A stretch of DNA of 64,000 bases, taken from contig NZ_JAQZAM010000009.1 of the NCBI RefSeq assembly GCF_028737215.1, forward strand, positions 124,001-188,000, in the 5' to 3' direction. Shown here one piece after another: positions 3,378 through 16,191 of the stretch; positions within the stretch are counted from its first letter, which is position 1, and every line of letters begins with the position of its first letter. The notes under the pieces were generated by a model that saw nothing but the letters and a program-made list of their open reading frames with translations, was not told where the DNA came from and did not search any database. The position numbers were made by a program, and so were the translations under genes. The stretch is from Actinomycetospora chibensis. Lineage in GTDB: Bacteria > Actinomycetota > Actinomycetes > Mycobacteriales > Pseudonocardiaceae.

Positions 3378-3518
3378 GCGTCGGCCGGGGTGGGCGTCCT
3401 CGGGTGCCGGAGGGCGCGCGACGGGCGCGCTCCATCCGTTCCGGGCACGTACGATCGGGGCGGGTGCGGCGGACGGGGCCAGGGGGGCCATCGCCCGGCG
3501 GATGCGCCCGAGGACCGG

Positions 3519-4043
3519 ATGACGAGGTGGGCCGTGACCAGGTCGGCGCGCGCGAACGGCGGCCAGGGCGGTCCCCGGGGCCGGGTCCGGATGAGCCCAC
3601 CCCCGGACCTCGTGGCCGCCCCCGGGTACGGCGCGCGGCGCCTCTACCAGGCCTATCTCGCGGCCTGGAACCGTCACGTCGACGCCGTGCTCACCGGCCC
3701 GCAGTTCGCCGTGCTCTCGGCGATCCGGGCCCACCCCGACGCCGACCAGACCGCCCTGGCCGGCGCGGTCGCCCTCGACACCTCGACGATGGCCGACGTC
3801 TGCCGCCGCATGGAGCGCCGCGGGCTCATCACGCGCACCGCCGCGCCGCACGACGCGCGGGCGAAGGTCCTGACCCTCACCGAGGACGGCGCCGCGGCCC
3901 TCACCGAGACCAACCGCCGCGCCCGCGCCCTCGACGAAGCGCTGCTCGACGGCTGCCCTCCCGAGCAGCGTCCACAGCTCGCGTCCCTGCTCAACGACCT
4001 CGGGCAGCAGTGGGAGCGCGTCGCCGAGCGCGACACCCTCTGA
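3519..4043 (+). CDS. nicR: MarR-family repressor, NicR-like
   Basis: 174 residues if the ATG at 3519 is used (GAGGA 5 bp upstream). ATG 3591 is an alternative. A winged helix (LTGPQFAVLSAIRAH, DTSTMADVCRRMERRGLI) and the basic wing with D-AR-K-L are typical of MarR. It sits immediately before the nicotinate genes and reads the same way. In Pseudomonas putida the nic genes are repressed by the MarR protein NicR, released by 6-hydroxynicotinate, so the same role is inferred here. The shared 31-bp elements at 4144 and 14976 are its probable operators. Direct evidence of binding is lacking. Confidence 0.75.
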   Translation: MTRWAVTRSARANGGQGGPRGRVRMSPPPDLVAAPGYGARRLYQAYLAAWNRHVDAVLTGPQFAVLSAIRAHPDADQTALAGAVALDTSTMADVCRRMERRGLITRTAAPHDARAKVLTLTEDGAAALTETNRRARALDEALLDGCPPEQRPQLASLLNDLGQQWERVAERDTL

Positions 4044-4143
4044 GGGGTCCGCGCAGAGCAAGACCCCGGGCTCGCGGGACGGAACCGGCTCCTCCCGCCG
4101 GCCCCCGACTCCGTGACGGGTTCGTTTCGAGATGCTCCAGGTA

Positions 4144-4174
4144 TTGCGTCCTCGGATAGTACGTGCTCGGATTG
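4144..4174 (+). promoter_or_regulatory. Putative NicR operator upstream of nicC
   Basis: A 31-bp element ending 41 bp before the nicC start. Its core is CTCGGATAGTACGTGCTCGG. It contains two direct copies of an 11-bp unit (CGTcCTCGGAT and CGTGCTCGGAT) 15 bp apart. The same 31 bp, with a single difference, lies upstream of nicX on the opposite strand (14976-15006). No other copy was noticed. Two near-identical copies in front of exactly the two divergent pathway operons point to a common regulator. Confidence 0.75.
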
Positions 4175-4215
4175 AACTCGAGCGAACGTGAAGTGCGACA
4201 CCGGGAGGCGGCCAG

Positions 4216-5484
4216 ATGGCGAGCCAGTCGTTCGAGGTCACCATCGTCGGCGGAGGTCTGGGCGGGCTCTGCGCGGCGCTGTCCCTGCGCCAGCGCGGCC
4301 TGCGGGTCACGGTCGTGGAGGCCGCGCCGGAGCTGGGCGAGATCGGCGCCGGCATCCAGACCGCGCCCAACGCGAGCCGCATCCTGATCGGGCTGGGGCT
4401 GCGCGCCCAGCTCGAGGCGATCCGGACCCAGCCCGAGGACCAGGTCCGCCGGCGCTGGGCGGACGGCAGCATCATCGCCCAGCTGCCCCTGGGCCAGCGG
4501 GTCATCGACCAGTACGGCGCCCCGTACTGGCACTACCACCGCGCCGACCTGCACCGCGTGCTGCTCGACGCCTGCGCCGACCCCGAGCTCCCGGGTCCGA
4601 CGGTCGTCCTCGCCACCGGCGCGAAGGTCGTCGAGCTGGACCGCTCCGACCCGGCGCGGCCGGTCGCGGTCGCCGAGGACGGCCGCCGCTTCGCCGGCGA
4701 CGTGCTCGTCGGCGCCGACGGCATCCGGTCGGCGGTGCGCGACCTCGCCGGGTTCGACGACTCACTCGTGTTCTCCGGCGAGATGGCCTACCGCGCCCTG
4801 ATCCCCGGCGACCTGATCGCCGCCGACCCGGCCACCCGCTTCCTCGTCGACCGCTACCACTCCACGATCTGGTACGGGCCCGACAAGCACCTCGTGCACT
4901 ACATCATCCGCGGCGGGCAGTACCTCAACGTCGTCGCGATCGTGCCGTGCACCGACACCATCGAGCGCGACTGGAGCGGCCCGGCGACCCCCGAGCAGCT
5001 CGCGGCCGACTTCGCCGACTGGGACGACCGCGTCCCGGCGATGCTGTCGAAGGCCAAGCCCGAGGACGTCTCGGTGTGGGCGATGTACCGGCGGCGCCGC
5101 GACCCGGTGTGGGTCGACGGGCGGGTGGCACTGCTCGGGGACGCCTGCCACGCCATGCTCCCCTACCAGGCCCAGGGCGCGTCCCAGTCGATGGAGGACG
5201 CCGCCGTGCTGGCCGAGGAGCTCGGCCGGGTGACCCGCGACGGCATCGACGCCGCGCTCGTGCGCTACGTCGACCGTCGCGCCAAGCACGCCGGGATGGT
5301 GCAGGACGCCTCGCTGCAGAACATGGCCTTCTACCACCTGCCCGACGGCCCCGAGCAGCGCGAGCGCGACGAGAAGCTGCGCCGCTTCGACGGCGAGTCG
5401 GACCTGTCGTACGACTGGCTGTGGAACGGCAGCCCGTTGCACGACCCCGACACCGAGTCCATCCACTACCAGTTCGCCCGCTGA
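4216..5484 (+). CDS. nicC: 6-hydroxynicotinate 3-monooxygenase (FAD-dependent)
   Basis: 422 residues from ATG 4216, with GGGAGG upstream. This is a class A flavoprotein hydroxylase. The FAD dinucleotide motif GGGLGG is at residues 12-17, the DG motif (VLVGADGIRSAVR) at 164-176 and the GD motif (GDACHAMLP) at 308-316. The salicylate-hydroxylase-like family includes NicC, which decarboxylatively hydroxylates 6-hydroxynicotinate to 2,5-dihydroxypyridine with NADH and O2. The enzyme name comes from its place in a full nicotinate cluster. By sequence alone it could act on another aromatic acid. First gene behind the shared operator. Confidence 0.82.
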   Translation: MASQSFEVTIVGGGLGGLCAALSLRQRGLRVTVVEAAPELGEIGAGIQTAPNASRILIGLGLRAQLEAIRTQPEDQVRRRWADGSIIAQLPLGQRVIDQYGAPYWHYHRADLHRVLLDACADPELPGPTVVLATGAKVVELDRSDPARPVAVAEDGRRFAGDVLVGADGIRSAVRDLAGFDDSLVFSGEMAYRALIPGDLIAADPATRFLVDRYHSTIWYGPDKHLVHYIIRGGQYLNVVAIVPCTDTIERDWSGPATPEQLAADFADWDDRVPAMLSKAKPEDVSVWAMYRRRRDPVWVDGRVALLGDACHAMLPYQAQGASQSMEDAAVLAEELGRVTRDGIDAALVRYVDRRAKHAGMVQDASLQNMAFYHLPDGPEQRERDEKLRRFDGESDLSYDWLWNGSPLHDPDTESIHYQFAR

Positions 5485-5528
5485 CGCGCGGACCGATCAG
5501 CACACCACCCGCGACGGGAGCGACCGCA

Positions 5529-6926
5529 ATGCGCACCGGAGACCAGATCGTCCAGGACCTGCCCTGGCGCTGGGGAGTCCAAGGAAAGATCTTCCTCATC
5601 GGCGGCCTCGGCTACATGTTCGACGCCTGGGACGTCGCCCTCAACGGGTTCCTCACCCCGCTCGTCGGCACCGAGTTCGGCCTCACGGCGGGCCAGAAGG
5701 GCCTGGTCGCAACGGCGAACCTCATCGGCATGGCCGTCGGCGCCGTCGCCTGGGGCACGGTGGCCGACCGCATCGGGCGCAAGAAGGCCTTCAGCATCAC
5801 GCTGCTGATCTTCGCGCTGTTCTCGGTGCTCGGGGCACTCTCGCCGAACATCGAGCTGTTCCTGGCGCTGCGCTTCCTCGCCGGCGTCGGGCTCGGTGGC
5901 TGTATCCCGGTGGACTACGCGATCGTCAGCGAGTTCTCGCCGCGGAAGAGCCGGGGGCGCGTGCTGTCGGCGATGGACGGCTGGTGGCCGATCGGCGCCA
6001 CCCTGGCCGGCGTCTCGGCCACGCTGCTGGTGCCGGTCACCGGCAACTGGCGCTGGATGCTCGTGCTGATGATCCTGCCCGCGCTCCTGCTGTTCTGGGT
6101 CCGGCGCGGGGTGCCGGAGTCGCCGATCTACCTCTCGCGCATGGGGCGCGAGGCCGAAGCCCGCCGCGTGATCGACGACCTCGTCGCCCGCACCGGCAGC
6201 ACCCCCGAGCCGTACGTCATCCCGGCCGCCGTCGCCGAGGACAAGCGGGGCGGCGCCTGGGCCGCCGCCGTCGACCAGCTGCGCCGCGTCTGGGCGTTCA
6301 ACCCGAAGATCACGGGCGTCGCGTGGTCGCTGTTCATCGCCGTCATGCTCGTCTACTACGCCGCCCTGAGCTGGATGCCCTCGATCCTCAAGGCCCAGGG
6401 CTTCGGCGAGATCGCCGCGTTCGCCTCGACGACGTTGATGAACGCACTGGGCATCGTCGGTGTCGCGATCTCCGTGCTCGTCGTCGACCGCTACGGACGC
6501 AAGCGCGTCATCGCGATCGCCGGCCCCGTGGCCTCCGCGACCCTGGTCCTGTTCTCCCTGCTGCTCGGCACGCCGACGCTCGCCGTCGTCGCGATCGGCG
6601 CGTTCGGGATGTTCGCACTGATCGTCATCCCGGTCATGTACGCCTACGTCTCCGAGCTCTACCCGACCGAGCTGCGCGCCTCGGGCTTCGGCTGGGCGTC
6701 GTCCTCGAGCCGCGCCATCACGGGCTTCGCCCCGCTGCTCTTCGGCAGCGTGCTCTGGCCGGTGCTCGGCCTGCCGCTGACGTTCACGCTGCTCGGCGTG
6801 CTCGTCGTGGCCGCGGTGGTCTTCATGTGGGTCGCGGCGCCCGAGACCGCGGGCCGCGAGCTGGACCGGATCACGACCGACGTGCCGGACGAGCCCGCCG
6901 CCGACCAGGAGCCCACCCGCGCCTGA
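5529..6926 (+). CDS. MFS transporter, nicotinate importer (NicT-like)
   Basis: 465 residues from ATG 5529, 44 bp behind nicC. Twelve hydrophobic segments are arranged as in aromatic acid:H+ symporters. DAWDVALNGFLTPL lies in helix 1. The loop 2-3 signature GTVADRIGRKKAF is followed by its weaker repeat VVDRYGRKRV in the second half. It would bring nicotinate or 6-hydroxynicotinate across the cytoplasmic membrane. The substrate is inferred from the neighbours. A large perfect hairpin follows the stop (6943-6989). Confidence 0.8.
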   Translation: MRTGDQIVQDLPWRWGVQGKIFLIGGLGYMFDAWDVALNGFLTPLVGTEFGLTAGQKGLVATANLIGMAVGAVAWGTVADRIGRKKAFSITLLIFALFSVLGALSPNIELFLALRFLAGVGLGGCIPVDYAIVSEFSPRKSRGRVLSAMDGWWPIGATLAGVSATLLVPVTGNWRWMLVLMILPALLLFWVRRGVPESPIYLSRMGREAEARRVIDDLVARTGSTPEPYVIPAAVAEDKRGGAWAAAVDQLRRVWAFNPKITGVAWSLFIAVMLVYYAALSWMPSILKAQGFGEIAAFASTTLMNALGIVGVAISVLVVDRYGRKRVIAIAGPVASATLVLFSLLLGTPTLAVVAIGAFGMFALIVIPVMYAYVSELYPTELRASGFGWASSSSRAITGFAPLLFGSVLWPVLGLPLTFTLLGVLVVAAVVFMWVAAPETAGRELDRITTDVPDEPAADQEPTRA

Positions 6927-6942
6927 GCGCACCCCGTTCCGC

Positions 6943-6989
6943 GCGAAGGGCACCATCGGCCGACAAGAGCGGCCGATGGTGCCCTTCGC
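6943..6989. terminator. 20-bp perfect hairpin after nicT-like gene
   Basis: Left arm 6943-6962 and right arm 6970-6989 are perfect reverse complements of 20 bp around the 7-base loop ACAAGAG. No U-tract follows, as is usual for high-GC terminators. It lies 16 bp past the transporter stop and about 70 bp before the dehydrogenase operon, so it probably ends or attenuates the nicC-nicT transcript. Confidence 0.7.
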
Positions 6990-7058
6990 CAGAACGTCAC
7001 CCCGCACCCGACCAGCCCGTACCCGGACCAGCCCGCACCCGCACAGGAGGCCCGCGAC

Positions 7059-7934
7059 GTGAAGCCCGCCGCGTTCACCTACCACCGCGCGCACGACGTC
7101 ACCGACGCCGTCGGGCTGCTCTCCGACCTCGCCGCGGCGGGCGAGGACCCGAAGCTGATCGCCGGCGGACAGAGCCTCATGCCGATGATGAACTTCCGGC
7201 TCGCGCGCCCGTCGGCGCTGGTCGACCTCGGCCCGCTGCGCCGGCTGCCGTCGATGACCGCGCTCGACGCGGACGCTGGGACCCTGACCGTCGGCGCGCT
7301 CGTCACCCACCACGCCGTGGAGACCGCGACGCTCCCGGACGGCTTCGCGGTGCTCGCACGGGCCATGCGCTGGGTCGGGCACCTGCCGATCCGCAGCCGC
7401 GGCACGGTCGCCGGCAGCCTCGTGCACGGCGACGCCACCGCCGAGTGGTGCCTGCTCGCCCTGCTGCTCGACGCGGTGGTCGTCACCGAGGGCCCGTCGG
7501 GCCGGCGCGAGATCCCCGCGGACGAGCTCTTCCACGGCTTCTACGCGACGGCGGTCGAGCCCGACGAGGTCGTCGTCGAGGTGCGGTTCACCCGGCCCGC
7601 CCCGCACGCCGCGCTCAGCGAGTTCGCGCGTCGGCACGGGGACTTCGCGATCGTCGACGCGGCGGTCGCGCTGGACGTCTCCGGCGACCGGGTCGCCGGC
7701 GGGCGCGTCGTCCTCGGCGGCGTGGCGCCCGCCCCGGTGCGGGTGCCGGAGGCCGAGGCGGTCCTCGCGGCCGGCGGCGCGCCGGGCCCGGAGCTGTTCG
7801 CCGCGGTCGCCGACGCCGCGGCCGCCGCGATCGACCCGCCCGACGACCCGCAGGTCACCTCCGCCTACCGCCGCCGGCTCACCCGCACGCTCGTTGCCGA
7901 CGCCTGCGCCCAGGCCGCGGGAGGCCCCCGATGA
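7059..7934 (+). CDS. Molybdenum hydroxylase FAD subunit (CoxM/NdhF-like), nicotinate dehydrogenase
   Basis: 291 residues from GTG 7059, with AGGAGG about 8 bp upstream. The FAD-binding PCMH-type motif AGGQSLMPMMNFRLARP and the second FAD signature around RSRGTVAGSLVHGDATAEW identify the medium subunit of a xanthine-dehydrogenase/CO-dehydrogenase-type enzyme. It would pass electrons from the iron-sulphur subunit through FAD to an acceptor. First gene of an operon whose members overlap by 4 bp. The role in nicotinate hydroxylation is inferred from context. Confidence 0.85.
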   Translation: MKPAAFTYHRAHDVTDAVGLLSDLAAAGEDPKLIAGGQSLMPMMNFRLARPSALVDLGPLRRLPSMTALDADAGTLTVGALVTHHAVETATLPDGFAVLARAMRWVGHLPIRSRGTVAGSLVHGDATAEWCLLALLLDAVVVTEGPSGRREIPADELFHGFYATAVEPDEVVVEVRFTRPAPHAALSEFARRHGDFAIVDAAVALDVSGDRVAGGRVVLGGVAPAPVRVPEAEAVLAAGGAPGPELFAAVADAAAAAIDPPDDPQVTSAYRRRLTRTLVADACAQAAGGPR

Positions 7935-10380
7935 CCACCACCGACCTGCCAGGCATCCCGCCCGAGGTCGACCCCGACCAGCCCGAGCCCGATGAGCCCC
8001 GTGAGCACGGCGGACGCCCCGCCGGCGAGCCCCGCTTCGACGGCCGCCGGGGCCGCTGGGTCGGCGCCTCGATCCCCCGGCACGAGGACCCGCGCCTGCT
8101 GACCGGGTGCGGCCGCTTCATCGACGACATCGCCCTGTCCGGGATGCTGCACGCGGGCTTCGTGCGTGCCACGGTCGCGCACGCCGCGATCACGGAGCTG
8201 GACCTCGCCGCGACCCGCGAGGTCCACGGCGTCGTCGCGGCCTACGACGCCGCGGACCTGGCGCTCGGCGACATCGTCGCCGTCCTCGACCGCCCCGCCG
8301 AGGAGTTCACGCCCACCGCGATGCCGATCCTCGCCCGCGGCAAGGTGCGCTTCGTCGGCGAGCCGCTGGCGCTCGTCGTCGCCCGCGACCCCTACGCCGT
8401 GGAGGACGGCATCGAGGCCGCCCGCGTGTCCTACGACGCGCTCGACGCCGTCGTCTCGGAGGAGACCGCGCTCGCCCCCGGTGCGCCCGCCGTGCACGAC
8501 GAGGCCCCCGACAACGTGCTGCTCGACGTCTCGATGTTCGACACCCCGGGGGTGGACGAGGCGTTCGCGGACGCCGCCCTGACCGTCGACGTCACCACCC
8601 GCAGCGGCCGCCAGAACGCGCTGCCGCTGGAGACGCGGGGTGTCGTCGCGTCGTGGGACGCGCGGGACGACCAGCTGCTCGTGCAGACCTGCTCGCAGGT
8701 GCCCCACCAGGTCCGCACGATGCTCGCGCGCTCGCTGGGGATCGCGGAACGGACGGTGCGGGTGACCGTGCCGGACATGGGCGGCGGGTTCGGGCAGAAG
8801 TGCGTCGTCGGGCGCGAGGAGATCGCCGTCGCGGCCGCCGCGCAGCGTCTCGACCGTCCGGTGAAGTGGATCGAGGACCGGCGCGAGGCGCTCACCGCCG
8901 GGTTCCTGGCGCGCGAGCAGCGCTACCGCACCCGCGCGGCGTTCGACGCCGACGGGCGGATCACCGCGCTCGACGTCGACGTCGTCTGCGACATGGGCGC
9001 GTACTCCTGCTACCCCTTCACCGCGGGCATCGAGCCGCTGATGGCCTCGGCGGAGATGCCGAGCGTGTACCGGGTGCCCGCCTACCGGGTCCGGGGCCGC
9101 GCGATCACCAGCAACAAGGCCCCCACCGCGCCCTACCGCGGGGTGAGCCGCCCGCAGTACGTCATGGCGATCGAGCGCGTGATGGAGCGCGCGGCGCGCG
9201 AGCTGGGCCTGGACCCGGTCGAGGTCCGCCGTCGCAACGTCATCACCGAGTTCCCGTACACGGGCGTCAACGGCGTCACCTACGACCCCGGTACCTACCT
9301 CGAGTCGCTCGACCTCGCCGAGGCGACGATCCGCGACGAGGGCTGGTACGAGGCGCGGGAGGCCGGCGACCGGCACCTCGGGATCGGCTTCTGCTGCTTC
9401 TCCGAGCGCACCGGCTACGGGTCCGAGGCGTTCGCGAAGCGCAAGATGACCGTCGTCCCGGGGTTCGACCTCTCCGAGATCCGCATGGACACCACCGGCT
9501 CGGTCGTGGTCACCAGCGGCACGATGAACCACGGGCAGTCGCACGAGACGACGTTCGCGCAGATCGTCGCCGACCGGCTCGGCCTCGACGTGGCGCGCGT
9601 GAAGCTGCGCCAGGGCGACACCGAGCGCATCGCCTACGGCTGGGGCACCTTCGCCTCGCGGTCGGTGACGATCGGCGGCTCCGCCGTGGCGCTGGCCTCC
9701 GAGCGGCTCGGCGAGCTGCTGTGCCGGATCGCCGCGCACCTGCTGGAGACCCGCCCGGACAACGTCGCGCTGGACGGGGACGGCGGGGTGGTCCAGCTCG
9801 ACGACCCGGCGCGCCGGCTGCCGTTCGAGGACATCGCCGACGTCGCCCACCTGCGCTCGCACCTGCTGCCCAAGGACGTCGAGCCCGCGCTCACCGCGAC
9901 GGCGAGCTTCGACGTCCCCGGCGACGGGACGTTCTCCAACGCCTCCCACGCCGTCGTCGTCGAGGTCGACCCGGGCACCGGGGAGATCCGGATCCTGCGC
10001 TACGTCTGCGTGGAGGACTGCGGGGTCGTGATCAACCCGAAGGTCGTCGACGGGCAGTGCCGCGGCGGGATCGCGCAGGGCATCGCCGGTGCGTTGTTCG
10101 AGGAGGTCACCTACGACGGCCACGGCGAGCCGTCGGCGGCCTCGTTCATCGACTACCTGGTGCCGACGGCCACGGAGATCCCCGACGTCTCGATACAGCA
10201 CCTCGAGACCCCGTGCGCGTTCACCGCCAACGGCGCGAAGGGCGCCGGCGAGGGCGGCACGATCGGCGCCCCTGCCGCGGTGCTCAACGCCGTCAACGAT
10301 GCCCTGCGCCACACCGGCGTCGAGCTCGACACCACACCGATCCACCCCAGCACCGTGCTGGCCGCACTGGAGGGCGAGCT

Positions 10381-10384
<4 letters not shown>
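7931..10384 (+). CDS. Molybdenum hydroxylase large subunit (CoxL/XdhB-like), nicotinate dehydrogenase
   Basis: 817 residues from ATG 7931, overlapping the previous stop (ATGA). It carries the aldehyde-oxidase/xanthine-dehydrogenase a/b hammerhead domain and molybdopterin-cytosine-dinucleotide sites (QVPHQVRTMLA, DMGGGFGQK, and NGAKGAGEGGTIGAP at the end with the usual catalytic Glu). The loop that is AYxCSFR in true CO dehydrogenase reads APYRGVSRP here, so this is not a form I CODH. It likely hydroxylates nicotinate at C6. The first 45 residues form an acidic, Pro-rich extension not usual for the family. Confidence 0.85.
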
Positions 10385-10862
<478 letters not shown>

Positions 10863-10866
<4 letters not shown>

Positions 10867-11555
10867 TCCTCGAGAACAAGCTCGACGTGCCCGCCGACCC
10901 GGACGCGGTGTTCGCGCTGCTGGGCGACGTCGAGCGCGTCGCCGGGTGCCTGCCGGGCGCGACCCTGGAGGGCCGCGACGGCGAGGCGTACACGGGCCGC
11001 GTGAAGGTCAAGGTCGGCCCGATCAGCGCCGCCTACGCCGGGACCCTGCGCTTCACCGACGTCTCCCCCGACCAGCGGACCCTGCGCCTGTCGGCCCGCG
11101 CGTCCGACGCCCACGGCGCGGGCGACGCGGAGGCCGACGTGGTGCTGTCGGTGCTCGAGGCCCCCGGCGGCTCGACCCTCGACCTGCACACCGACCTCCT
11201 GGTGCGCGGCAAGATCGCCCAGTTCGGCAAGGGCGCGATCACCACCGTCTCCAGCCGCCTGCTCGACCAGTTCGCGCGCAACCTCGCCGGCGAGCTGCAC
11301 CAGGGATCGGGCACCTCCGGCGCCGGCGTGGGGGCCACGCTGACGTCGGACGTCAGGAAATCCCCCAGCTCGACGCCGTCGACCCCCGCGGACGAGGCCC
11401 TCGACGGCCTCGCGATGCTCCTGCCTCCGGGCACCGGGCGCTGGGCCGCGCTGGCGGGCGCGCTCGGCGTGGGCCTGGTCCAGGGCTACCTGCTCGGCCG
11501 CCTGCGCGGACAGAAGATGCTGATCGAGGAGCTGCGACGCCATGCCCGACGCTGA
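10863..11555 (+). CDS. CoxG-like SRPBCC protein with C-terminal membrane anchor
   Basis: 230 residues from GTG 10863 (GTGA overlap with the small-subunit stop). Residues 1-145 match the CoxG/SRPBCC fold (ILENKLDVPADPDAVFALL, CLPGATLEG, KVKVGPISAAY). A low-complexity Ser/Thr/Pro linker follows, then a hydrophobic C-terminal helix (WAALAGALGVGLVQGYLLG) with a basic tail. In CO-oxidising bacteria CoxG attaches the dehydrogenase to the membrane, so here it may recruit the nicotinate dehydrogenase to the respiratory chain. That role is by analogy. Confidence 0.8.
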
Positions 11556-12225
11556 GACCGACACGACCGGCCTGCACGGCTCGGCCACCGACGACGTCTA
11601 CGACCGCGCCGGCTTCGGGGCCACGGTCCCCCGCGGACCCCGGCCCGCGCTCGTGGTCGTCGACCTCACCCGCGGCTTCACCGAGCCCGGCTTCCCGCTC
11701 GGCGCCGACCTGACCGCCGAGGTCGCCGCGGCCGCGCAGCTCATCGAGGTCGCCCACCGGCGCGACGTCCCGGTGATCGCCACCGCCGTCTCGTTCACCG
11801 CCGCCGAGGCCGACGGCGACGCCGTCGCCTGGCTCCGCAAGGCCCCCGGCGTGCGCGCGCTCCGGGAGGGCAGCGACGCCGTCGCCCTCGACGACCGTCT
11901 CGGCCTCGCCCCCGACGACCACCGCATCCTCAAGAAGGGCGCCTCGGCGTTCCACGGCTCGTCCCTCGCCGCGCTGCTCGCCGGCCTGCGCATCGACACC
12001 GCCGTGGTCTGCGGCGCCACCACCTCCGGCTGCGTGCGCGCGACGGCCGTCGACGCCGTGCAGAGCGGTTTCGACACGCTCGTAGTCGCCGACGCGTGCG
12101 GCGACCGCGCACGCGGCCCGCACGACGCCGCCCTGTTCGACCTCCAGGCCAAGTACGCCGACGTCGTCACCCTCGACGACGCCGTGTCCTACCTCGACGA
12201 CCCCTTCCGGAAGGCCGATTCGTGA
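11542..12225 (+). CDS. nicF: Maleamate amidohydrolase (isochorismatase family)
   Basis: 227 residues from ATG 11542, overlapping the CoxG-like gene by 14 bp. The cysteine-hydrolase triad is visible: Asp41 in LVVVDLTRGF, Lys131 or Lys132 in ILKKGASAF, and Cys164 in TTSGCVRATA. The cis-peptide turn AT-TSGC matches the NicF/N-carbamoylsarcosine amidase branch. The reaction is maleamate + H2O to maleate + NH3, the fifth step of the pathway. Function is secure at family level and specific by cluster context. Confidence 0.87.
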   Translation: MPDAETDTTGLHGSATDDVYDRAGFGATVPRGPRPALVVVDLTRGFTEPGFPLGADLTAEVAAAAQLIEVAHRRDVPVIATAVSFTAAEADGDAVAWLRKAPGVRALREGSDAVALDDRLGLAPDDHRILKKGASAFHGSSLAALLAGLRIDTAVVCGATTSGCVRATAVDAVQSGFDTLVVADACGDRARGPHDAALFDLQAKYADVVTLDDAVSYLDDPFRKADS

Positions 12226-13082
12226 CCGGTACGTCCCTCGAGTCCCCCGACGCCCGCGTCCTCACCCAGCCGGCCCTGGCCGATCTCGCCGACGTTCCGG
12301 CGGTGAGCCGCTGGGTGCGCTCGGGGGACGTCCGCCTGCACCTCCTCGACTACGGCCCGGCCGACGGCGTCCCCCTGGTGATCGTCCCCGGCATCACGAG
12401 CCCCGCGATCGCCATGGACTTCGTCGCCCGCGAGCTCACCGACCTCGTGCGGCCGGTGGTTCTCGACGTCCGCGGTCGCGGCCTCTCCGACAGCGGGGAC
12501 GCCTGGGACCTCGACACCTACGCCGGCGACGTCGCCACGGTCGTCGACGGCCTCGAGCTGGGCCGCCCGCTCGTGCTCGGGCACTCCATGGGCGCGCGGA
12601 TCACCGCCGTCGCCGCCACCCGCCTCGACCTGCGCGCCACGGTGCTCGTCGACCCGCCGATGAGCGGCCCGGGGCGGGGGCCCTACCCCACCACGCTCGA
12701 GGCCTTCCTCGGCCAGCTCGACCAGGCACGCCGCGGCACGGACGCCGACGAGGTCGCCGCGTCCTGGCCCCGCTGGCCCCGCCGCGAGCAGGAGCTGCGC
12801 GCGCGCTGGATGGGCTCGATCTCGCGCGACGCGATCGTCGCCACGCACGCCGGCTTCGAGTCCGACGACTTCTTCGCCGTCTGGCCCGCGGTGCCCGCGC
12901 CGACCGTGCTGATCCACGGCGGCGACAGCCCGGTCGTCACGGCCGCCGGCGCCGAGGAGGCCGCGAAGGCGAACCCCGAGGCGTCGGTCGTCGAGGTCCC
13001 CGGCACCGGCCACATGGTCTTCTGGGACGAACCCGCCGCCGCCCGCACCACCGTCCGCGGCGCGCTGCACTCGCTGCTCTGA
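12222..13082 (+). CDS. nicD: N-formylmaleamate deformylase (alpha/beta hydrolase)
   Basis: 286 residues from GTG 12222 (GTGA overlap with nicF). An alpha/beta-hydrolase with nucleophile elbow LGHSMGAR, oxyanion region IVPGITSPA and a terminal catalytic His in GTGHMVFW. In the maleamate pathway NicD releases formate from N-formylmaleamate, the ring-opening product of NicX. Last gene of the plus-strand operon. It converges on nicE, with a bidirectional hairpin between them. Confidence 0.82.
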   Translation: MTGTSLESPDARVLTQPALADLADVPAVSRWVRSGDVRLHLLDYGPADGVPLVIVPGITSPAIAMDFVARELTDLVRPVVLDVRGRGLSDSGDAWDLDTYAGDVATVVDGLELGRPLVLGHSMGARITAVAATRLDLRATVLVDPPMSGPGRGPYPTTLEAFLGQLDQARRGTDADEVAASWPRWPRREQELRARWMGSISRDAIVATHAGFESDDFFAVWPAVPAPTVLIHGGDSPVVTAAGAEEAAKANPEASVVEVPGTGHMVFWDEPAAARTTVRGALHSLL

Positions 13083-13083
13083 C

Positions 13084-13142
13084 GCGACGGGCACGTCCCG
13101 CAGGCCCCGACGCCGGTCGGTCCTGCGGGACGTGCCCCTCGC
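13084..13142. terminator. Bidirectional hairpin between nicD and nicE
   Basis: Arms 13089-13104 and 13122-13137 are perfect 16-bp complements. After one mismatched pair, GCGA at 13084-13087 pairs with TCGC at 13139-13142. The loop is 17 bases. It fills the 62-bp gap between two convergent genes and would stop transcription from both sides. Confidence 0.75.
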
Positions 13143-13144
13143 GG

Positions 13145-13927
13145 TCAGGCGACGCGCGTGACCGCCCCCGGGTCGTGCACGCTCCCGGAGAGCAGCGCCC
13201 CCGCACCGGGGACGTGGGTGGAGAGGCCGAGCTCGGAGAGGATCCGGAACGTCGTCGCGGTGGCCGCCGAGAGCACGGGGATGCCCACCTCGTCCTGCAC
13301 GGCCTGGACCACGGGCAGCGAGGGCATCTGCACGCAGCACGAGAGCACGAGCGCGTCGGCCCCCGTCAGGTCGAGCTTCTTGTAGTGCTCCCGCAGGTCC
13401 GCCGGGTCGAGGCGGGCGACGGCGAGGTTGTCGGGCACCTCGAGCGACAGGGAATCGACGACCTCGATGCCGGCGTCCTCCAGGTAGGCCACCACGGCGG
13501 CGGTCAGCGGCTTCATGTACGGCGTCACGATCGCCACCCGCCGCGCGTCCAGCGCCGCGAGCCCCGAGAGCAGGGCGCCCGCCGACGAGATCACCGGGGC
13601 GTCGGCGCCCCCCGCGCGCAGGGCACCGGTGATGTCGTCCTCGGCGCTGCAGTGGAACCCCGGCCCCTGAGCCATGATCGCCACCAGGCAGGCGGTGGCC
13701 ACGACGTCGGGGCGGGCGTCCGCGAGCTCGGTGGCCGCGCGGACCGCCTGGGCGTTCATCGCCTGGAGCTGCTCCGGGGTCACGTGCTGCATGCGCGCCC
13801 GTGCGGCGTGGAAGACGAAACGGTCCTCCGGGATCGCCTGCTCCCGCGCCGCCAGCATCCGCGGCAGCTCGGTCTCCATCGTGAGGTTGGAGCTCGGGAC
13901 GATCATGCCGATGTGGTGGTCGGTCAT
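13145..13927 (-). CDS. nicE: Maleate cis-trans isomerase (Asp/Glu racemase family)
   Basis: 260 residues from ATG 13925-13927. The N-terminus GMIVPSSNLTMETELPRML is the classic maleate isomerase/arylmalonate decarboxylase start. The two active-site cysteines are Cys80 (VVATACLVAIMAQG) and Cys197 or Cys198 (LVLSCCVQMPS), at the spacing of Pseudomonas NicE (82 and 200). It converts maleate to fumarate, linking the pathway to the TCA cycle. Its start codon overlaps the nicX stop (ATGA), so nicX-nicE are one transcript. Confidence 0.9.
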   Translation of the reverse strand: MTDHHIGMIVPSSNLTMETELPRMLAAREQAIPEDRFVFHAARARMQHVTPEQLQAMNAQAVRAATELADARPDVVATACLVAIMAQGPGFHCSAEDDITGALRAGGADAPVISSAGALLSGLAALDARRVAIVTPYMKPLTAAVVAYLEDAGIEVVDSLSLEVPDNLAVARLDPADLREHYKKLDLTGADALVLSCCVQMPSLPVVQAVQDEVGIPVLSAATATTFRILSELGLSTHVPGAGALLSGSVHDPGAVTRVA

Positions 13928-14955
13928 CGGGCCCCCGTGGGACGCATCTCCGGAATCGTCAACCCACCCTTGTCCACGATCAGCTCGTCGTCCAGGTAGA
14001 GCGAGTTGCCGCGCATGGGGATGTCGAAGTGGCACGGGGTGTCGTTCGGGCCGCCGAGCTCGTTGTTCGGGCCGATCGAGAACATGACGTTGCCGTAGAA
14101 ACTGCGCAGCTCCATGCCCATGCCGCCGCCGAACTGCGTGAGCCCGTGCCAGTGGGCGCGCTCGTCGAGACCCCAGCCGACGTGGGACATGCCGTAGCCC
14201 CGCGGGTCGTCGAAGCTCTGGATGTAGGAGCTCAACAGGTCCGCGTCCAGGCCGCCCCGGATGTCCCGGATGAAGCCCTGCTCGATCGTCAGCGTCACCG
14301 GGGTCTGCACGTAGGTGTTGAACGGCAGCAGCACGTCGCCGGGCGAGAGCACGATCTGGCCGTCGACGCCGTCGTCGGCGCCGCCGGTGAACACGAACGC
14401 CGCCGGCCAGTGGTCCCAGCGCCCGGGGGTGTCGGTGTAGCCGTACTCGCTCATCGTGGGGTAGACGCCGAGCCGGTAGGTGACGTCGGTGCCGGCGGGG
14501 CTCGTGATCCGCATCGACGAGGCCTTGGCCAGCAGATCCGCGCCGTACTCGACGCGCTCGCGCAGCTCGGTGGTCGGCATCAGCCGGGCGAGCAGCTCGG
14601 GCGGCTCGACGGCGGTCAGGATGCGGGTGCCCGCGTCCTGGATCGCGAACTGCTCGGGGCTGAAGAGCAGGAAGGTGCAGTCGACGAGCATGTCGACCGA
14701 CTTCAGCGCCTCGACGGCCAGCGGGATGTCCCCGAGACCGGAGTCGCCGACGGCCCACGCGCCGGACGCGCTCGCGGGCGGGGGCAGGCGCAGGTGGAAG
14801 GTCGCCGCCCCGAGCTGCTGCGCCGCCCACAGGAACGCATCGGCGTACTCCCCGCGCTCGGCGCCCCGGGTCAGCACCGCCACGGTCTCGCCCTCGTGGA
14901 CCCCGGAGAGCCGCAGCTGCGCCAGGCAGATGTCGTTGAACAGGTTCTGGTCCAT
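13924..14955 (-). CDS. nicX: 2,5-dihydroxypyridine 5,6-dioxygenase
   Basis: 343 residues from ATG 14953-14955, with GGAGGTGG 8 bp upstream. The frame stays open upstream, but the shared operator and the SD fix the start here. This is an M29-aminopeptidase-like fold dioxygenase. Probable Fe(II) ligands are His258 (MSHVGWG), His309 and Asp311 (CHFDIP), at nearly the spacing of P. putida NicX (265, 318, 320). It opens the ring of 2,5-dihydroxypyridine to N-formylmaleamate. First gene of the minus-strand operon, 20 bp behind the operator copy. Confidence 0.88.
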   Translation of the reverse strand: MDQNLFNDICLAQLRLSGVHEGETVAVLTRGAERGEYADAFLWAAQQLGAATFHLRLPPPASASGAWAVGDSGLGDIPLAVEALKSVDMLVDCTFLLFSPEQFAIQDAGTRILTAVEPPELLARLMPTTELRERVEYGADLLAKASSMRITSPAGTDVTYRLGVYPTMSEYGYTDTPGRWDHWPAAFVFTGGADDGVDGQIVLSPGDVLLPFNTYVQTPVTLTIEQGFIRDIRGGLDADLLSSYIQSFDDPRGYGMSHVGWGLDERAHWHGLTQFGGGMGMELRSFYGNVMFSIGPNNELGGPNDTPCHFDIPMRGNSLYLDDELIVDKGGLTIPEMRPTGAR

Positions 14956-14975
14956 CGGTCGACCACCTCCGTCCA

Positions 14976-15006
14976 CAATCCGAGCACGTACTATCCGAGC
15001 ACGCAA
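14976..15006 (-). promoter_or_regulatory. Putative NicR operator upstream of nicX
   Basis: The reverse complement matches the element at 4144-4174 at 30 of 31 positions; the one change is C to G after TTGCGT. In this copy the two 11-bp direct units (CGTGCTCGGAT) are identical and 15 bp apart. It lies 20 bp from the nicX start codon, in a position to block the promoter. It also lies about 85 bp from the divergent NYN-domain gene. Confidence 0.75.
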
Positions 15007-15090
15007 GGACTGCAACGAGATCGTCATCGAGGTGGGGCCGCACGGCGGAGCCCACGCGTCCGTCCCGGGACCGCCGCCTAGGCTGCCCCG

Positions 15091-16191
15091 ATGCCCCCGG
15101 AGGACGAACGCATCGCCCTGTTCCTCGACTACGAGAACCTGGCCATCGGCGCCCGCGACGGGCTCGGGGTGAGCCCGTTCGACTTCGGGCCGGTCGCCGA
15201 CGCGCTGGCCGAGCGCGGCCGGGTGGTGACGCGGCGGGCGTACGCGGACTGGTCATCGTTCGACGAGGACCGCCGGCTGCTGGCCCGCGCGCAGGTCGAG
15301 CTCATCGAGATCCCGCAGCGCATCGGCGGCTCCCGCAAGAACGCCGCCGACATCAAGATGGCCGTCGACGCGATCGAGCTCGCCTTCGAGCGCGAGTTCG
15401 TGACGACGTTCGCCATCGGCACCGGAGACTCCGACTTCACCCCGCTGATGCACAAGCTGCGCGAGATGGACAAACGCGTCATCGGCATCGGCGTGCAGTC
15501 GTCGACCTCGAAGCTGCTCCCCGCCGCGTGCGACGAGTTCCTGTTCTACGACCGCCTGCCCGGTGTCGAGGGGCGTCCGGTCCCCCTGAAGACCTCGCGG
15601 CGACGGCCGGCCGCGGCGGCGGCCGCCCTCGCCGCCGAGCCGGTACCCGTCGAGCCGGAGCCGGTCGCGGCCCCCGTGCCCGAGGAGACCACGGCCGGCG
15701 GGTCCGACACCGACGTCACCGCGGTGGTGACCAGCACGCTCGCCGGCCTCGCGCGGGCCACCGACGGACCCGTCCGCGCATCGACGCTCAAGCGCGCGAT
15801 CCTCCGCAAGGACCCCACGTTCGACGAGGGCGACCAGGGGTTCCGCGGCTTCGGGGAGCTCCTGCGCTACCTCGAGGGCCGCGGCGTGCTGGCGCTCGCT
15901 CCGGGCACCGCCGCCGGCGACCCCGAGGTGTCGTTCCCCGAGGACACCTCGGCCGAGGACGAGGCGTTCGCGCTGTTCGCCACCACCGTGCGCGACCTGG
16001 AGGCCGCCGCCGGCGCGCCGCCCCAGCTCTCCGGTCTCAAGGACCAGATGCGCAAGCGCGATCCCGACTTCTCCGAGAAGCGCTACGGGTTCAACGGCTT
16101 CCTGTCCTTCGCCCGCGCCGCGCGCGCTCGCGACCTGGTGACGATGGACTGGGACGAGGGCCGCGGCGACTACCAGCTGTCGGTGTACTGA
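15091..16191 (+). CDS. NYN-domain (LabA/PIN-like) putative RNase with OST-HTH/LOTUS domains
   Basis: 366 residues from ATG 15091. Residues 8-160 form a NYN domain with the acidic metal-binding residues in LFLDYEN, KNAADIKMAVDA and IGTGDSDFTPL. A Pro/Ala linker follows (about 170-210). Then come two OST-HTH-like repeats (around RKDPTFDEGDQGFRGFGELL and KRDPDFSEKRYGFNGFLSF), which bind RNA in the LOTUS family. A cytoplasmic RNA-processing role is likely. It is divergent from nicX but looks unrelated to nicotinate use. Confidence 0.85.
   Translation: MPPEDERIALFLDYENLAIGARDGLGVSPFDFGPVADALAERGRVVTRRAYADWSSFDEDRRLLARAQVELIEIPQRIGGSRKNAADIKMAVDAIELAFEREFVTTFAIGTGDSDFTPLMHKLREMDKRVIGIGVQSSTSKLLPAACDEFLFYDRLPGVEGRPVPLKTSRRRPAAAAAALAAEPVPVEPEPVAAPVPEETTAGGSDTDVTAVVTSTLAGLARATDGPVRASTLKRAILRKDPTFDEGDQGFRGFGELLRYLEGRGVLALAPGTAAGDPEVSFPEDTSAEDEAFALFATTVRDLEAAAGAPPQLSGLKDQMRKRDPDFSEKRYGFNGFLSFARAARARDLVTMDWDEGRGDYQLSVY

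What the first reader, a model, noticed from the sequence alone, without database searches (positions are those of the whole stretch)
4144..15006. Near-identical 31-bp operators before nicC and nicX
4144-4174 (+) and 14976-15006 (-) match at 30 of 31 bases and contain two 11-bp direct units 15 bp apart. They lie 41 and 20 bp from the two start codons, far apart and on opposite strands, so chance or local duplication is unlikely. Direct (not inverted) half-sites would be unusual for a MarR protein, which normally binds palindromes.
Basis: seen in the sequence. Interest (0 to 1): 0.75.

Follow-up and report, generated by a model that had tools for sequence, protein, structure and literature searches.

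The report
MarR repressor sites of nicotinate operons

Summary
In detail: the 31-bp elements match at 30 of 31 bases, and their tandem unit occurs only twice in the 6.2-Mb genome. Comparison with 80 named nicX loci shows they are most likely operators of the neighbouring MarR protein (3519-4043). Sites and MarR gene go together: of 59 loci with sites, MarR was seen for 58 and could not be tested for one; 14 of the 21 site-less loci lie in genomes without a MarR match. A single copy also precedes the MarR gene itself, here at 3437-3454 (-), which implies autoregulation. The 'direct repeat' reading is only partly right. Across relatives each unit is half of an 18-bp inverted repeat (TARTCCG-N4-CGGAYTA, perfect in several genera) with the layout of the PcaV operator. 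The window carries two such sites overlapping by 3 bp, 15 bp apart, with decayed left arms. This doubling marks one MarR clade (62 of 68 sites against 1 of 40). Best model: repression by promoter occlusion, relieved by a nicotinate-pathway acid, probably 6-hydroxynicotinate, as in Pseudomonas NicR and Bordetella BpsR but with a PcaV-like protein. Binding and inducer are inferred; no experiment was run.

The parts
4144..4174 (+). 31-bp operator element before nicC (right 18-bp site 4157-4174 plus overlapping left 18-bp site 4142-4159, offset 15 bp)
14976..15006 (-). 31-bp operator element before nicX-nicE (right 18-bp site 14976-14993, left 14991-15008)
3437..3454 (-). third, single, diverged copy (TCGTACGTGCCCGGAACG), 64 bp before the MarR start used here (GTG 3519); presumed autoregulatory site
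   Evidence: corresponding site before 32 of 33 clade-I MarR rows with enough upstream sequence (31 of 32 distinct genes)
4155..4160 (+). GATAGT, -10-like hexamer overlapped by the operator (inferred promoter)
14990..14995 (-). GATAGT, -10-like hexamer overlapped by the operator (inferred promoter)
3519..4043 (+). MarR-family regulator, PcaV-like; presumed repressor
   Evidence: PF01047 1.5e-12; PcaV 4fht 2.3e-20; model and PDB fold match
4216..5484 (+). NicC-like FAD monooxygenase (6-hydroxynicotinate 3-monooxygenase by context)
   Evidence: PF01494
5484..6926 (+). MFS aromatic-acid transporter
7059..10866 (+). molybdenum hydroxylase subunits: FAD (7059-7934), Mo (about 7934-10384), 2Fe-2S (about 10396-10866); presumed nicotinate hydroxylase
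11542..12225 (+). NicF-like isochorismatase-fold amidohydrolase
12222..13082 (+). NicD-like alpha/beta hydrolase
13924..14955 (-).
13145..13930 (-). NicE-like maleate isomerase, same direction and overlapping nicX (name by recall)

Best explanation
The elements are operators of the MarR-family protein encoded at 3519-4043, a PcaV-like repressor of nicotinate breakdown. A MarR dimer reads an 18-bp inverted repeat of the form TARTCCG-N4-CGGAYTA. [quoted passage not shown] They cover the -10-like GATAGT and block RNA polymerase at both convergent operons (nicC-transporter-hydroxylase-nicF-nicD and nicX-nicE). A single weaker site before the MarR gene gives autoregulation. A pathway acid, most likely 6-hydroxynicotinate, binds the pocket around Arg40 and releases the protein. 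Shown by computation: the elements, their conservation, symmetry in relatives, co-occurrence with the gene, the third site, and the PcaV-like fold and operator layout. Inferred: binding, two-dimer occupancy, occlusion and inducer.
For: Presence: of 80 named nicX loci, 59 hold an 18-bp site; the MarR gene was found in the locus or genome for 58 of these, and L106 was not held. Of the 21 site-less loci, 14 lie in genomes with no MarR match at E<=1e-15. In an order-wide sample (overlapping the named set), 18 of 25 nicX genomes have both, and 7 have neither a site near nicX nor a MarR match above 69 bits. Autoregulation: a site 83-203 bp before MarR codon 34 in 32 of 33 clade-I rows (31 of 32 distinct genes), 0 of 6 paralogues, and 0 matches in 270,537 bases of 13 site-less nic loci. 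Symmetry: (and 42, circular). PcaV: closest solved relative by sequence and fold; 36 of 37 distinct operator words align to the PcaV probe in one register; mean identity is reached by 0 of 2000 plain shuffles of the probe and 4 of 2000 that keep its palindromic form. Pocket: R40 and W50 (PcaV R15, number recalled, and W25) in every nic MarR row that has a residue there. Promoter: GATAGT/GATAAT spans bases -2 to +3 in 61 of 68 clade-I sites. Two-dimer precedent: Rv2887 (PMC5526998, passages).
Against: In the window the inverted arms pair at only 3-4 of 7 positions, and at 3 of 7 in the third site. L086's genome has a MarR match of 139 bits without an operator, though not beside nic genes. G448 (L101) has a MarR gene in its nic locus but no match to the strict pattern. 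In clade II only 5 of 26 rows have a site at <=1 mismatch in the 330 bp before MarR codon 34, and L080 has none. No good -35 was found for clade I. Both BpsR histidines and PcaV H9, H21 and Y38 are replaced, so the inducer is uncertain. MarR absence rests on a first look whose candidates were not all scored in some genomes, for example G406 and G410. No binding data.
Confidence: 0.88

Rival explanations
1. The elements are truly read as direct repeats: clade-I MarR dimers, or another regulator with direct-repeat sites (for example of the IclR family), contact mainly the two CGGAT half-sites, and the left arms do not matter.
For: In the window the direct units match 10-11 of 11 while inverted arms pair 3-4 of 7. 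17 of 21 distinct clade-I site words have A where symmetry wants C. The 15-bp offset is the only repeat offset above the reporting cut-off.
Against: Perfect inverted repeats at the same place in L044, L047, L050 (nicX) and L066, L067, L072, L074, L079, L080 (nicC). L087 and L104 carry the nicX site in the opposite orientation. Blind symmetry test. PcaV-type layout. Apart from MarR and a LOTUS domain at 15091, no DNA-binding family was found among the ORFs scanned in and beside the cluster.
Confidence: 0.12
2. The elements are core promoters (shared -35/-10 or a special sigma factor site) rather than operators.
For: They sit 20-41 bp before start codons and contain GATAGT/GATAAT; TTG occurs 13 bases before the right site in 58 of 68 clade-I sites.
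Against: They are absent from nic loci of genomes without the MarR, the tandem unit occurs only twice in the genome, and a copy recurs before the MarR gene at varying distance. In clade II a separate TTGACA-like hexamer (4 or more of 6) stands 17 bp before the -10-like hexamer in 11 of 40.
Confidence: 0.05
3. Recent duplication or gene conversion of one upstream region, with no regulatory meaning.
For: 30 of 31 identity between two places 10.8 kb apart.
Against: Identity stops at the element edges, while the same element is kept in other genera whose flanks differ; 74 of 108 site contexts remain after removing those 70% or more identical.
Confidence: 0.01

Closest known systems
PcaV of Streptomyces coelicolor and its operator
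   Same: Closest solved relative by sequence (2.3e-20) and fold. The operator probe in PMC6882365 (passages) contains TACTCAG-TGCC-CTGACTA, the same 7+4+7 inverted repeat; one clade-II site (L095) matches it at 16 of 18. W25 kept, and R15 (number recalled).
   Different: Controls protocatechuate (pca) genes; half-site TCAG rather than TCCG; pocket residues H9, H21, Y38 differ; no tandem overlap mentioned in the passages read.
NicR of Pseudomonas putida
   Same: MarR repressor of the nicC and nicX operons (PMC10269826, passages): the same two target promoters.
   Different: Proteobacterial; PMC6837509 (passages) says NicR lacks the BpsR inducer residues. Its operator was not available here, so sites could not be compared.
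BpsR of Bordetella
   Same: MarR repressor of nic genes that binds 6-hydroxynicotinate (PMC6837509, passages); solved relative at 3e-12; Arg26 equals R40.
   Different: His23 and His32 are Tyr37 and Tyr46 here.
Rv2887 of Mycobacterium tuberculosis
   Same: Two MarR dimers on a 30-bp DNA, each covering 15 bp, on nearly opposite faces (PMC5526998, passages): a precedent for a 15-bp tandem.
   Different: Different sequence, target and ligand; recognition there is described as indirect.

Membership tests
MarR family regulator (protein 3519-4043) | MarR winged-helix domain | tested here: met
   PF01047 47.7 bits against cut-off 24.6; predicted fold matches MarR structures, PcaV first
MarR-type operator | inverted repeat read by a dimer | tested here: met
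   inverted repeat met across relatives, blind mean 4.41 of 7 against 2.27 background, perfect cases; weak in the window copies, 3-4 of 7. Reading by a dimer not tested
MarR-type operator | site in the promoter of the marR gene itself (common, not universal) | tested here: met
   32 of 33 clade-I rows (31 of 32 distinct genes), but only 5 of 26 clade-II rows at <=1 mismatch
MarR-type operator | protein binds and is released by a ligand | not testable with these tools
   needs gel shift
PcaV-type operator | TA-N-TCAG-N4-CTGA-N-TA layout | tested here: met
   same register for 36 of 37 words; 0 of 2000 plain and 4 of 2000 palindrome-keeping shuffles as good; one base per half-site differs
NicR/BpsR nicotinate repressor | MarR gene linked to nic genes, sites before nicC and nicX | tested here: met
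NicR/BpsR nicotinate repressor | 6-hydroxynicotinate pocket (BpsR Tyr15, His23, Arg26, His32) | tested here: not met
   of the three positions that could be compared only Arg26 is kept; Tyr15 lies outside the aligned stretch. Not filed as a BpsR orthologue; works like one

The most novel reading that the evidence does not exclude
In one MarR clade (Thr at the start of the recognition helix, residue 88) the operator changed from a single palindrome to two overlapping sites 15 bp apart, whose left arms then drifted away from symmetry in step. The repressor of Actinomycetospora may thus read a direct repeat of CGGAT half-sites cooperatively: a MarR protein moving from palindrome to direct-repeat recognition, with intermediate stages preserved in living relatives.
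Probability: 0.25. Interest if true: 0.6.

Novelty: new member of a known kind. Interest (0 to 1): 0.42.

Why it matters
It assigns a probable regulator, an operator code and a three-promoter regulon to nicotinate breakdown in actinomycetes, where none came up in the open-licence papers searched. The set of relatives, from perfect palindromes to near-direct repeats, paired with a Thr/Arg difference at the start of the recognition helix, makes operator and protein co-evolution directly testable. Operator and repressor could also serve as a sensor for a nicotinate-pathway acid.

Tried and rejected
The longer ORF 13924-15027 would place the nicX element inside coding sequence, where it reads RARIVRARIV. 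Rejected: the MDQN start preceded by a GGAGG-like stretch is kept in close relatives.

A 31-mer search finds no good site in many relatives; the shorter 18-bp site was needed.

The symmetry test is circular, because sites were chosen with a palindromic pattern; one search repeats it blind to the left arm (5 of its 54 nearest sites pair at 0 of 7). One search's T88/R88 counts are partly by definition, because the clade-I list was made by the motif DTSTMAD; the independent part is that those rows form one side of a branch (36 rows, 100/98). L138 also has T88 but is not in that group. In one search some loci whose MarR lies off the locus were put in a clade by hand from their kin. The plain probe shuffle destroys the palindrome; one search repeats it keeping the palindrome (4 of 2000 as good).

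The degenerate 18-bp pattern is not exclusive to nic genes: 111 of 397 genomes of the order match somewhere (88 of them among the 372 without nicX, counted by hand from the table), and two of the four matches in the own genome lie elsewhere. Of 11 MarR-less genomes, 8 have no match and three (G419, G427, G429) one each, outside the fetched nic loci. Ten stray places were fetched; their genes were not identified and none was recognised as a nic promoter.

In one search the rows L031, L032, L033, L035, L036 and L072 are artefacts of truncated loci and were dropped; L066, L074 and L076 were too short; L044 and L125 are the same gene. In one search a Fisher test was run on hand-tallied counts; I do not use it, as the loci are related. 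The PcaV paper itself is not held; the operator comes from an EMSA probe in PMC6882365. The clade-I -35 could not be identified.

Full report
Observation. The two elements are real and as described. Allowing 3 mismatches, the 31-mer is found twice in the window and never in 100 dinucleotide shuffles; the 26-bp tandem unit occurs twice in the whole genome of 6.18 Mb. The window comes from a relative of Actinomycetospora (the ten nearest named loci are 93-97% identical in NicX).

Setting. Pfam and NCBIfam place a MarR regulator at 3519-4043, then a (+) gene row: NicC-like FAD monooxygenase, MFS transporter, three molybdenum hydroxylase subunits, a CoxG-like protein, a NicF-like amidohydrolase and a NicD-like hydrolase. 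A convergent (-) pair holds nicX and nicE. Each row starts with one element. NicX and NicE names rest on gene order and recall, not on a family match (NicX had none).

Co-occurrence. In 80 named nicX loci, 59 hold at least one 18-bp site at up to 2 mismatches from TWRTCCGNNNNCGGAYWA. For 40 of these a MarR homologue lies in the fetched locus and for 18 more in the same genome; the last, L106, could not be searched. Of the 21 loci without such a site, 14 lie in genomes without a MarR match at E<=1e-15 (in a few of these genomes not all first-look candidates were scored). Four (L057, L058, L097, L105) are second nicX copies, of another gene order, in genomes that also carry a MarR-type cluster. 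L083 has MarR and a site elsewhere in its genome. L071's genome has only a 73-bit match. L086's genome has a 139-bit match that is not beside nic genes and has no site.

An order-wide sample of 397 genomes, overlapping the named set, gives 25 with nicX. 18 have both a site on the nicX contig and a MarR match of 132 bits or more; 7 have neither a site near nicX nor a MarR match above 69 bits (for G068 and G143 the place of the pattern match was not listed, but none lies in the 4-kb nicX locus). Of 8 nicX-less genomes also searched for MarR, six had no match, one 71 bits, and one, the same-genus G267, a paralogue-level match (147 bits, 52%).

A third site. At 3437-3454 (-), 64 bp before the MarR start, lies TCGTACGTGCCCGGAACG, one mismatch from the directional pattern TNRTMMGTRYYCGGAYNR. 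The corresponding stretch, 83-203 bp before codon 34, holds a site in 32 of 33 clade-I MarR rows with enough upstream sequence (31 of 32 distinct genes; L080 lacks it), in the same orientation each time, and in 0 of 6 Actinomycetospora-type paralogues; in clade II only 5 of 26 rows have one at this threshold. The same pattern at <=1 mismatch occurs 0 times in 270,537 bases of 13 site-less nic loci. MarR proteins are frequently autoregulatory (PMC5487221, passages), so this ties the sites to this protein.

Symmetry. In Saccharopolyspora nicX (L044, L047, L050) the right-hand site is the perfect inverted repeat TAATCCG-TGCT-CGGATTA; in L066, L067, L072, L074, L079 and L080 the nicC site is TAATCCG-TGTT-CGGATTA. 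Two nicX promoters (L087, L104) carry the site turned round. Choosing sites by the spacer and first five bases of the right arm only, nearest-to-start sites before nicX (54 of 61 upstream regions had one) pair at 4.41 of 7 positions on average, against 2.27 for 1805 matches over the 80 loci, true sites included. A test with palindrome-chosen sites gives 4.90 at the true centre and at most 2.90 at the twelve other centres tested (circular, shown for completeness). The window copies pair at only 3-4 of 7, the third site at 3.

Doubling. A second half-site CGGAT lies exactly 15 bp upstream in 62 of 68 clade-I sites and 1 of 40 clade-II sites; TTGCG, its partner arm, in 53 of 68 against 7 of 40. 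The two 18-bp sites share 3 bp (for example CGGATAATCCG in L066). Clade-I MarR proteins form one side of a branch (36 rows, support 100/98) and have Thr88; clade-II proteins have Arg88 (see the caveat in Tried and rejected). In the model (mean pLDDT 85.3) residue 88 is the first of helix 88-100, taken as the recognition helix by comparison with MarR folds. Two MarR dimers on a 30-bp DNA, each covering 15 bp on nearly opposite faces, have been seen for Rv2887 (PMC5526998, passages).

Likeness to PcaV. PcaV is the nearest solved structure by sequence (2.3e-20) and by fold (2.4e-11); HosA and BpsR follow. The PcaV EMSA probe (PMC6882365, passages) contains TACTCAG-TGCC-CTGACTA. 36 of 37 distinct nic words align with it in the same register on one strand or the other; mean identity is 11.57 of 18, reached by 0 of 2000 plain shuffles and 4 of 2000 shuffles that keep the palindrome. 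Pocket positions: R40 (BpsR R26; PcaV R15, number recalled) and W50 (PcaV W25) are present in every nic MarR row that has a residue there; PcaV H9, H21, Y38 (named in PMC6882365) are A34, Y46, F63; BpsR His23 and His32 are Tyr37 and Tyr46 (one clade-I row has Phe at 37). A carboxylate-binding arginine fits an aromatic acid such as 6-hydroxynicotinate, but the exact inducer is not fixed by this.

Promoter. GATAGT or GATAAT spans bases -2 to +3 of 61 of 68 clade-I sites; GATCGT of 22 of 40 clade-II sites, where 11 of 40 have a TTGACA-like hexamer (4 or more of 6) exactly 17 bp upstream of that hexamer. The site therefore likely covers the -10, which suits a repressor; in clade I no -35 was found.

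Known context. P. [quoted passage not shown] The regulon logic here is the same; the protein and operator are PcaV-like. No paper describing this actinomycete operator came up in searches of the open-licence library; that does not cover subscription journals.

Verdict. Most likely a real operator set of a MarR repressor of nicotinate catabolism, ordinary in principle, with an unusual overlapping double form. The direct-repeat claim holds only as a surface description of the diverged Actinomycetospora copies.

Noticed in passing
G000:C24:12463-12912 (L146) and L141-L144, L155: A second PcaV-like MarR gene, about 50-55% identical to the nic one, in six genomes (own and five Actinomycetospora); it groups apart from the nic clade (100/100) and has no nic-type operator beside it. 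Its own upstream region shows another repeat (TGACACAAC-like, seen by eye in two).
   Followed up: partly
L057, L058, L059, L061, L070, L081, L090, L096, L097, L105, L107, L110: A different nicotinate cluster order (NicF, FAD subunit, NicD, NicX, Mo subunit, NicE in one direction; NicE before NicD in L105, L107, L110; Mo and FAD subunits 35-44% identical) with no operator and no MarR gene in the locus; its regulator is unknown.
   Followed up: no
L104:9936-9983: Three overlapping 18-bp sites in a row at 15-bp steps before nicX in a Nocardiopsaceae genome, the middle one the most symmetric: a longer train of the same arrangement.
   Followed up: partly
L062: In Pseudonocardia sp. CNS-004 the hydroxylase and MarR genes match in several broken pieces, possibly sequencing errors in the draft.
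   Followed up: no
G306:C1:6125130 and G055:C11:39483 (L159, L160): TGGTCCGTATTCGGATGG, a weak match kept in Amycolatopsis-type genomes near the start of a predicted gene (the same word also occurs in G090 and G438); possibly chance or another regulator's site.
   Followed up: partly
15091-16191 (+): A NYN-domain protein with a possible LOTUS domain starts 84 bp beyond the nicX element, divergent to nicX, so the two genes share this short upstream region.
   Followed up: no
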